DNA of 64,000 nucleotides from Neocallimastix lanati (nom. inval.) (lineage: Eukaryota; Neocallimastigomycota; Neocallimastigomycetes; Neocallimastigales; Neocallimastigaceae). Below the pieces are notes generated by a model. The model saw nothing but the letters and a program-made list of their open reading frames with translations, did not search any database and had not been told where the DNA came from. Of this stretch, positions 27,201 to 30,200 are shown in pieces. The DNA lies in NCBI GenBank assembly GCA_016946835.1, contig JACVTC010000007.1:770001-834000 (forward strand). Direction: 5' to 3'. How positions within the stretch are numbered: the first letter of the stretch is position 1; each line of letters begins with the position of its first letter. A program made the translations under genes and the position numbers.

Positions 27201-30200
27201 TCCTGAAACATTTGTTTGTGATGAAGATTCTCCTTCATGTGAATCACAATTAAGAGTAATTAATTTAAATAAAAAACAAAAAAAAAAAAACAAAAAAAAA
27301 AAACAAAAAAAAAAAATTATTATATGTAATTTATATATATTATTTTTATTATATAAAAACTATTATAGATTTGTGCAGAAACTTTATTCTTAAATTTATT
27401 CTCCTCATATAGTGAAATTATTGCACCAAAAATCTTAGTTTATGTTCAAAAAGCATCTGGTAAATTTTATTATTATTATTATTATAATTATTATTAATAT
27501 ATATTATTATCATTATTATAAATGCTATATTTTTTATATTTAATATTGATAATATTAATATTGATAATATCAATTAATTAATGCTAATATTATTTTATAT
27601 AATTAAATTAAATTATATATACATTATTATATATTAAGAAATTACTGATAAGGCCTCAAAAGATGATATTTTATTGAAGGATGCTATTTACTCCACTATT
27701 GGTTTAGGTGCAAATAATTTTAGTGAAATTATTGATTTTGATTCATGGTTTTTGAATAATTTATTACAGGAAGGTTTAAATAAATCACCAAAGTAGGTTT
27801 TTTTAATATCTATAAAGATTTTAATTTAGTATTTCTGAATATTAAAATGAAACAAATTCTTTTTTATTATTATAATTATAGTTATTATCATTAGTATTAA
27901 TATTATGATTAATAATAATAACTTATTATAATATTATAAATATTATTTCTGTTATTATTGTTACTAATATTATTACTATTAATAATATTACAATTTATTA
28001 TTATTTATTATTATTATATTTTTATTATTATTTATTTATAAATATTAGCTTTGTTATTATAAGACGTCGTATTTCTTGGTTGATTTCAAAATGGATTAGT
28101 GTAAAAGTTTCTAAGGAAATTAGACCAAAAATCTATGAATTATTAATTTCCCTTTTAGTTCCAGAAGAAGATTTAGTTATTAGATTAACTACTATTAATA
28201 CTGTTCATTCTTATATCCTTTTTATTATTTTTAAATAATATATATAATTTTGTTTTTTTATTTTTTATTTTTTTTTTTTTTTTTATATTATATTATATTA
28301 TATTATATTATATAATTTTTTATTTTATTTAATTTTATTTTTTATTTTATTTTTTTTTTTTTTTATTTTTTAATTTATTTTAAAAGTATCTATGTATATA
28401 TATAATTTTTCCTTAATTGAAATATACGTGTTGATGACTGGGAATTTGAGCTTGATTCCTATTTACCATATAATGAAGCAATTATTGATTTATGTCTTAG
28501 ATTAATATTTGAAACTACTGAATTTGATTGTAAAATTAAAATAATAAATTGTTTATCAGTTATTGTTGAAAGAATGGGTACTAAGGTAAAATATATATAT
28601 ATATATATTAGAATTAATATTAAATGATATTTTATATATTAAATATTCATATAAAAAAAAAAAAAAAAAACTATTTAAATAAGGTTGTTGTTTGTGCAGA
28701 AAAAATTATAAATATATTACCACAATTATGGGACAGCTCTGGTGAAGAACAATATACTTTTAAATCTGCCATTATCGTTATTTTAACCAAATTCGTTATT
28801 GTATATAATAAAACAATAATATCGAGAAGAATAAATAAAAATATTAATTTATTAAATATTTATATGAAATAATTATATATGTATTAAATAATATAATAAA
28901 TAATATAATAATTAATAATAACTTAGGCATTAAGACAGGATTCTATGCAAATTTATAATATAACCATTCCAATTATAAAAAAATGTCTTGATACTAGTAC
29001 TGTAAGTTTAGTTTATAAATATTAAATCCTGTTAAAAATAATGTTTTTTTTTTTTTTTTTTTTTTTTTTTGATGTTAATAAATAATTATACTATATTATT
29101 ATTATTATTATTATTATTATTATTATTATTATTATTATTTTTTAAAAAAAAAATATTTATATATCCATATATAGAAATCCCAATATTATTTCTTTATAGA
29201 AGATATTTTAGAATTATGGCAAGGAATTGTTCAAAATGCTACAGAATGTTCACCTGAATTATTAAGTTTATTTCAACCATTATTAACTCTTTATGATTAT
29301 GGTACAACTTTATTAACAGTTATAAAAATTACTGAATCCTATGTTGTTTTAGCACCGGATGTTATATTCCAAGTATGTCATATAAATAAATAAATAAATA
29401 AATAAATATATATATATATATATATATATATATAAATAAGTAAACAAATATAAATAAATAAATAAATGTATATATATATATATTAATAAAAATATAAAAT
29501 TTAAATAGCAATATGGTATTGATTTGTTTAATAGATTATCTGAAGTTATTGATCATCCTAAACCAGAAATTGTTAAACATACTGTAAGAATTATAGACTT
29601 TTCACTTCAAATTTGTCATCATAATCAATGTTTACCATCTATTATAGAAGTTATGATGAATACACCAATATTTGAAAAGATGCTCGAAACTATTATGAAA
29701 GAAAAGGTAGATATAAATAATAATTCAATATAGAGTTATTTTTATATTATCAAAAAAAAAAAAAAAAAAAAAAAAAAAAAAAAAAAAAAAAAAAAAAAAA
29801 AAAAAAAAAAATAATAATAATAATAATAATAATAATAATAATAATAATAAATAAGTAAATAAAAAATAAAAATAATAATATAAATAAATAATATATCATT
29901 ATTAATAAAAATTAAAAAAATTAATATATAAATATTTAATAGGGATATTGTCTTGCAATTGTTGATTATTTATCTATATTTGCTAGAATTATGCTATGCG
30001 ATGCTAATATTTTCTTAAATTTAATGAAACATTTGGGACAAAAATGTGAACCACCACAAGATAGTATTTTAAAACCAATGCTTCAAACTTATGTTGATAG
30101 AGTAATTATAATTATAATTAAAATAATAATATTATTATTAATATTAAATATATAGATTTTTATTAATTTTTATTTTTTAATATATATATATAAATATATA

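What the first reader, a model, noticed from the sequence alone, without database searches (positions are those of the whole stretch)
28213..28427. Textbook U12-type AT-AC intron in a fungal karyopherin gene
Donor ATATCCTTT, branch site TTCCTTAAT 11 nt before an AC acceptor, and in-frame joining to the conserved VDDW motif are all seen directly. Established knowledge: the minor spliceosome has been lost in most studied fungi and survives in only some early-diverging lineages. An exact-consensus AT-AC intron implies that this fungus still has U11, U12, U4atac and U6atac snRNAs and their proteins.
Basis: partly seen in the sequence, partly recalled or inferred. Interest (0 to 1): 0.87.

Follow-up and report, generated by a model that had tools for sequence, protein, structure and literature searches.

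The report
Minor-spliceosome intron in gut fungus
A nuclear-import gene of an anaerobic gut fungus carries one rare AT-AC intron, and the fungus has parts of the separate minor splicing machinery that removes such introns; that is a further case of something already reported for this group, but one of its splicing RNAs has an unexpected change in the part that should grip such introns.

Summary
Window 28213-28427 is a 215-nt AT-AC intron, number 13 of 20 in an importin-11/KAP120 gene; the other 19 are GT-AG. Donor ATATCCTTTTT, branch site TTCCTTAAT, AC end and a unique phase-1 join all check. The predicted protein matches the annotated Neocallimastix sp. 'constans' protein at 986 of 987 residues. 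A diverged second copy in the same genome has an exact TTCCTTAAC branch site and AC end at this junction; its protein is known from a 3,108-nt contig without introns, presumably a spliced transcript. The genome has U11, U12, U4atac, two U6atac genes, SNRNP25 and CENATAC. Minor introns in Neocallimastigomycetes were already reported (PMC10639083, passages seen), so the intron is a new member of a known kind. The surprise lies outside the finding: both U6atac genes read AGCCGAGAGA where AAAGGAGAGA is expected, which weakens predicted pairing with this donor, although U11 still matches it and U6 is normal. Whether other donors shifted could not be tested; the genome-wide census did not complete.

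The parts
24281..30801 (+). importin-11/KAP120 gene, 21 exons, 987 aa (exon model made by hand; exon 13 start moved to 28049 after comparison with P0001)
   Evidence: Pfam PF25758 and PF03810; 6fvb_A; 986 of 987 residues identical to P0001
28049..28212 (+). exon 13, ends ...VHS + first base of codon 554
28213..28427 (+). U12-type AT-AC intron, phase 1
28213..28223 (+). U12-type 5' splice site ATATCCTTTTT; 8 contiguous predicted pairs (one G-U) with the U11 5' end
28409..28417 (+). U12-type branch site TTCCTTAAT
28426..28427 (+). AC 3' splice site
28428..28585 (+). exon 14, starts with the rest of codon 554 and VDDW

Best explanation
This is a genuine U12-type AT-AC intron, removed by a functional minor spliceosome in a Neocallimastix anaerobic gut fungus. 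U11 (with its proteins) binds ATATCCTTTTT, U12 binds the TTCCTTAAT branch site, the U4atac/U6atac.U5 tri-snRNP joins, and the exons are fused at codon 554 (Cys) of importin-11. Shown by sequence: the splice signals, the reading frame, the snRNA genes, two minor-spliceosome proteins, and a paralog with the same 3' signals at the same junction. Inferred: the splicing steps themselves (from established knowledge of the minor spliceosome), and that the intron-free contig behind P0002 is a transcript.
For: Exact donor, near-exact branch site, spacing and AC end at a conserved exon joint. 986 of 987 residues identical to the annotated N. sp. 'constans' protein, the joint included. A paralog in the same genome has TTCCTTAAC + AC before the same exon. 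The paralog's exons match P0002 (7 of 14 segments at 100%), whose 986-aa frame lies unbroken on a 3,108-nt contig. U12 56.8 bits (cut-off 53), U6atac 57.4 and 56.4 (33), U11 40.5 (39), U4atac 47.2 (53). U11's likely 5' end AAAAAGGG lies 134 nt upstream of the Rfam alignment start; the 268-nt RNA folds with an outer stem closing three hairpins and its end pairs over 8 bases with the donor. U4atac/U6atac pair over 11 contiguous bases in the predicted duplex. SNRNP25 (E 9.5e-7, over cut-off; PDB 1v2y E 2.7e-6 and 8r7n chain B E 3.1e-5) and CENATAC/CCDC84 in three collinear pieces, two of them over the cut-off.
Against: No reads across this junction were seen. The paralog's donor is unseen, because the sequence given reads N there. 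U4atac is under Rfam's curated score. At laxer E-values the control genomes also rang for U6atac (2 of 14), U4atac (1 of 14) and U11 (1 of 14), none over a cut-off. Both U6atac genes lack the normal 5'-splice-site box, which changes predicted pairing with this donor from -7.1 to -2.8 kcal/mol. The minimum-energy fold of U11 pairs its AAAAA end with the downstream U-run; I take that run to be protein-bound in the RNP, which is recalled knowledge.
Confidence: 0.95

Rival explanations
1. An AT-AC intron removed by the major (U2) spliceosome, as some AT-AC introns are known to be.
For: The U6atac box is altered while the U6 genes are canonical. PMC3584512 (passages seen) states that AT-AC ends are not exclusive to U12-type introns.
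Against: The donor matches the U12-type consensus and the branch site is U12-type at the right spacing; a paralog keeps the branch site and AC end. The genome keeps the dedicated snRNAs and SNRNP25 and CENATAC.
Confidence: 0.03
2. Not an intron of this form: the real gene uses GT-AG sites nearby or the gene is broken here.
For: Three in-frame GT-AG pairs exist in the stretch scanned.
Against: All three delete the VDDW region that is kept in P0001, P0002 and P0003 and in KAP120 of 6fvb.
Confidence: 0.01
3. For the U6atac anomaly only: the U6atac genes found are decayed or specialised copies, and a normal-box U6atac exists but is missing from the assembly or the search.
For: The two copies are a recent duplication, 96.5% identical over 1,209 nt, so they are one line of evidence. 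Only 46 of 4,700 first-look candidates were scored in the Rfam search.
Against: A direct search for the normal box with up to 2 mismatches found 0 matches in 199 Mb (its reversed control pattern found 1). The first 54 nt of the two copies, box included, are identical while later positions and the flanks differ. The U4atac found pairs with these copies over 11 contiguous bases.
Confidence: 0.25

Closest known systems
Minor introns and snRNAs in Neocallimastigomycetes (PMC10639083, 2023, passages seen)
   Same: Same class of fungi; [quoted passage not shown]
   Different: The passages seen give no gene-level detail for these fungi, no IPO11 intron and nothing on the U6atac box. Its supplements and figures were not seen.
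Minor introns of Rhizophagus irregularis (same paper)
   Same: U12-type introns, all four minor snRNAs and orthologs of ZMAT5, RNPC3, SNRNP35 and SNRNP25 in a fungus outside Dikarya (passages seen).
   Different: Another fungal group (Glomeromycota); its snRNAs are shown in a figure that I could not see.
U6atac GG14/15CC and U11 GG6/7CC suppressor mutants on the P120 intron (PMC4980772, passages seen)
   Same: Changes in the same snRNA stretch that contacts the 5' splice site; the fungal U6atac differs at nt 12-14 by alignment to Rfam.
   Different: Laboratory changes made to match a changed donor. Here nt 15 is still G, the U11 end is normal and this donor is normal.

Membership tests
U12-type intron | 5' splice site [A/G]TATCCTT | tested here: met
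   ATATCCTTTTT at 28213
U12-type intron | branch site TTCCTTRAY close to the 3' splice site (optimum 11-13 nt per PMC3584512, passages seen) | tested here: met
   TTCCTTAAT, 11 nt after the second A; the paralog has TTCCTTAAC
U12-type intron | AT-AC or GT-AG ends | tested here: met
   AT-AC, no boundary sliding possible
U12-type intron | removed from mRNA at these sites | tested here: inconclusive
   No reads seen. The annotated protein and an intron-free contig for the paralog agree with the joint
U12-type intron | minor spliceosome present in the organism | tested here: met
   U11, U12, U6atac over Rfam cut-offs, U4atac at 47.2 against 53 bits; SNRNP25 and CENATAC over cut-off. The PDCD7/59K search did not complete; 65K, 48K, 35K, 31K and 20K were not searched
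U6atac snRNA | covariance-model match RF00619 | tested here: met
   57.4 and 56.4 bits against a cut-off of 33
U6atac snRNA | pairing with U4atac | tested here: met
   11 contiguous pairs in the predicted U6atac/U4atac duplex, -32.7 kcal/mol; prediction only
U6atac snRNA | AAAGGAGAGA box complementary to the U12-type 5' splice site | tested here: not met
   AGCCGAGAGA in 2 of 2 copies; 0 normal-box copies with up to 2 mismatches. It is therefore called U6atac by overall match, with a variant box
importin-11/KAP120 | IPO11-type repeats and importin-beta N-terminal domain | tested here: met
   PF25758 277.8 bits, PF03810 55.1 bits

The most novel reading that the evidence does not exclude
In this Neocallimastix the U6atac-5' splice site helix has been rewired: the only U6atac genes found have lost the complementarity at nt 13-14 (and weakened nt 12) to a donor that U11 still reads over 8 bases. 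The hand-over from U11 to U6atac would then rest on about two inner Watson-Crick pairs (A16-U4, G15-C5) plus outer pairs, on proteins (such as U11-48K, PRP8 or CENATAC), or on a new U6atac hairpin GCCGA/UUGGC. The intact frame of importin-11 suggests that such a minor spliceosome still works.
Probability: 0.35. Interest if true: 0.72.

Novelty: new member of a known kind. Interest (0 to 1): 0.42.

Why it matters
The intron adds one gene-level, paralog-supported AT-AC example to the minor splicing already reported in anaerobic gut fungi. More important, the genome offers a natural test of a rule from cell-culture assays. In PMC4980772 (passages seen) an intron with changed donor bases 5/6 was spliced again only when U6atac nt 14/15 were changed to match. 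Here U6atac nt 14 is C while the donor keeps its C at base 6. If confirmed, this would show that the RNA pairing which commits a minor 5' splice site to catalysis can be reduced or replaced in evolution.

Tried and rejected
GT-AG alternatives for the exon joint: three open-frame pairs, all removing conserved residues. First thought that the U11 5' end was also altered (AGAAUAGG in the Rfam alignment); rejected, because AAAAAGGGCTTATG lies 134 nt upstream on the same strand, and the 268-nt RNA from there folds with an outer stem closing three hairpins. My first exon-13 start (28064) was wrong by 15 nt; I moved it to 28049 only after seeing P0001, so the 986 of 987 agreement is not blind at that one acceptor. 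Search for relatives of the U6atac core in viral and prokaryotic contigs: 0 and 0 matches (records near this genome may be left out there). Paper searches whose listings showed nothing on IPO11 minor introns or on an altered fungal U6atac box: which listed 12 of 34 papers; most listed papers were not opened. Scan of the window and 11 loci for other U12-type introns: only the one given; this says little about the genome. PDB search with the first CENATAC exon: no match at E up to 1. Rfam and tRNA scans of the window itself: nothing.

Co-evolution of U6atac with the U12 5' end: not shown. Predicted energies were -6.1 (own U12, own U6atac), -4.0 (own U12, Rfam U6atac), -6.6 (Rfam U12, own U6atac) and -5.3 kcal/mol (both Rfam).

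Census of other U12-type introns: the way to learn whether donors changed together with U6atac. The pattern request did not complete, so this point is open and the novel reading is held at 0.35.

Full report
What was checked. The window lies on a 2.3-Mb contig of a 199-Mb, 762-contig genome. Its G+C is 18.5%. The importin protein predicted here is 986 of 987 residues identical to an annotated protein of Neocallimastix sp. 'constans'. The genome paper for N. cameroonii var. constans (PMC12341934, passages seen) gives 187.1 Mb, 558 scaffolds and 18.2% GC, and lists N. californiae at 193.0 Mb and N. lanati at 201.0 Mb and 970 scaffolds; the held assembly matches none of these, so I call it Neocallimastix and no more.

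The intron. Exons 13 and 14 of the gene end and begin at 28212 and 28428. The 215 nt between begin ATATCCTTTTT and end TTTTTCCTTAATTGAAATATAC. The other 19 introns of the gene are GT-AG, 98 to 278 nt long, so this one stands alone. It is phase 1, and its borders cannot be shifted. The branch site differs from the full consensus only in its last base. A first-order Markov simulation of the window gives 0.04 strict hits per window against 1 observed (100 simulations, both strands).

The gene. Pfam finds the importin-11 repeats (277.8 bits) and the importin-beta N-terminal domain; the best solved relative is KAP120, 6fvb. A protein search with residues 480-640 found 3 relatives among 622 candidates: P0001 (Neocallimastix sp. 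'constans'), and P0002 and P0003 from JGI contigs of 3,108 and 3,119 nt. All three read HSCVDDW through the junction. My exon model was made by hand; one acceptor (exon 13) was corrected after seeing P0001.

A second copy with the same junction. The genome holds a paralog on another contig (34 exon matches in all, on two contigs). Before its exon 14 stands TTTTTTCCTTAACAAATATATATAC|GCGTTGATGATTGG (the border is placed by alignment): an exact U12 branch site and AC end, while the bases between them differ from the window copy. The upstream part of this intron reads N in the sequence given, so its donor is unseen. Of 14 tblastn segments between P0002 and this copy, 7 are 100% identical and 7 are 87-99%; several of the latter run past exon ends. 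Since the gene is split by introns and P0002 needs 2,958 nt of a 3,108-nt contig, that contig is most simply a spliced transcript. This is inference: the contig type is not stated.

The machinery. Rfam searches of the whole genome gave U12 (56.8 bits), two U6atac (57.4, 56.4), U11 (40.5) and U4atac (47.2, under the cut-off of 53). In 14 control genomes none of these families passed its cut-off; at the laxer E-values used, U6atac rang in 2, U4atac in 1, U11 in 1 and U12 in 0 of them. U4atac is nevertheless convincing to me, because it pairs with the U6atac found here over 11 contiguous bases and carries CAAUUUUUGGAA, as the Rfam consensus does. The U11 alignment starts 134 nt too late: upstream lies AAAAAGGGCTTATG, and the 268-nt RNA from there folds with outer stem GCUUA/UGAGC closing three hairpins. 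Its 5' end pairs over 8 bases with the donor, one of them G-U. In the minimum-energy fold the AAAAA also pairs with the downstream U-run. SNRNP25 and CENATAC, in three collinear pieces of which two pass the cut-off, are present; the joined SNRNP25 piece matches PDB 1v2y and chain B of 8r7n, the U11/U12 25-kDa protein. That CENATAC favours AT-AN introns is recalled, not looked up.

The anomaly. In both U6atac copies the stretch GAAAGGAGAGAAGGUUAGCAC of the Rfam consensus reads GAGCCGAGAGACAGUUGGCAC. By the numbering of PMC4980772 (GG14/15), nt 12-14 change from AAG to GCC. Predicted pairing of this stretch with the donor falls from -7.1 to -2.8 kcal/mol, in a different register. The changed stretch can form a five-pair hairpin GCCGA/UUGGC (-6.0 kcal/mol). 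It can also form four pairs GGCA/UGCC with the U12 5' end, but swaps with the Rfam consensus partners do not show co-evolution (energies in Tried and rejected). U6 itself is canonical (ACAGAGAAGAUUAGC) in 4 of 4 copies over the cut-off. No normal-box U6atac was found with up to 2 mismatches. The two copies are a recent duplication (96.5% over 1,209 nt), identical in their first 54 nt, so they are not independent.

What is known. [quoted passage not shown] PMC2846911 (passages seen) records an earlier finding of U12-type RNAs in Zygomycota and Chytridiomycota. The presence of the minor spliceosome here is therefore expected. I found nothing in print on this IPO11 intron or on the U6atac box in the listings of searches, which cover open-licence papers only.

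Verdict. The observation and its reading hold. The intron is a new member of a known kind. The U6atac change is the part that would surprise a specialist, and it stands or falls with a census of donor sites that I could not run.

Noticed in passing
L002:1501-1649 (-), L003:1501-1646 (+): Both U6atac genes carry AGCCGAGAGACAGUUGGCAC where the Rfam consensus has AAAGGAGAGAAGGUUAGCAC: the 5'-splice-site box is changed.
   Followed up: partly
L005:1367-1634 (+): U11 is probably about 268 nt with AT-rich stem extensions; the Rfam model starts the alignment 134 nt too late, so an automatic annotation would give a wrong 5' end.
   Followed up: partly
window 50808-57545 (+): PRP8, the core protein shared by both spliceosomes, is encoded about 22 kb from the intron (PROCN, PRP8_domainIV, U6-snRNA_bdg and others). 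Probably coincidence.
   Followed up: no
L016:1501-1598 (-), L017:1501-1612 (-): Two U6-like sequences under the cut-off (39.9 and 34 bits): one with an intact ACAGAGAAGAUUAGC core but a different 5' part, the other overlapping an inverted repeat.
   Followed up: no
L030: Importin-11 has a diverged second copy in the same genome (77-98% identity in the 14 significant tblastn segments), so the pair comes from a gene or larger duplication.
   Followed up: partly
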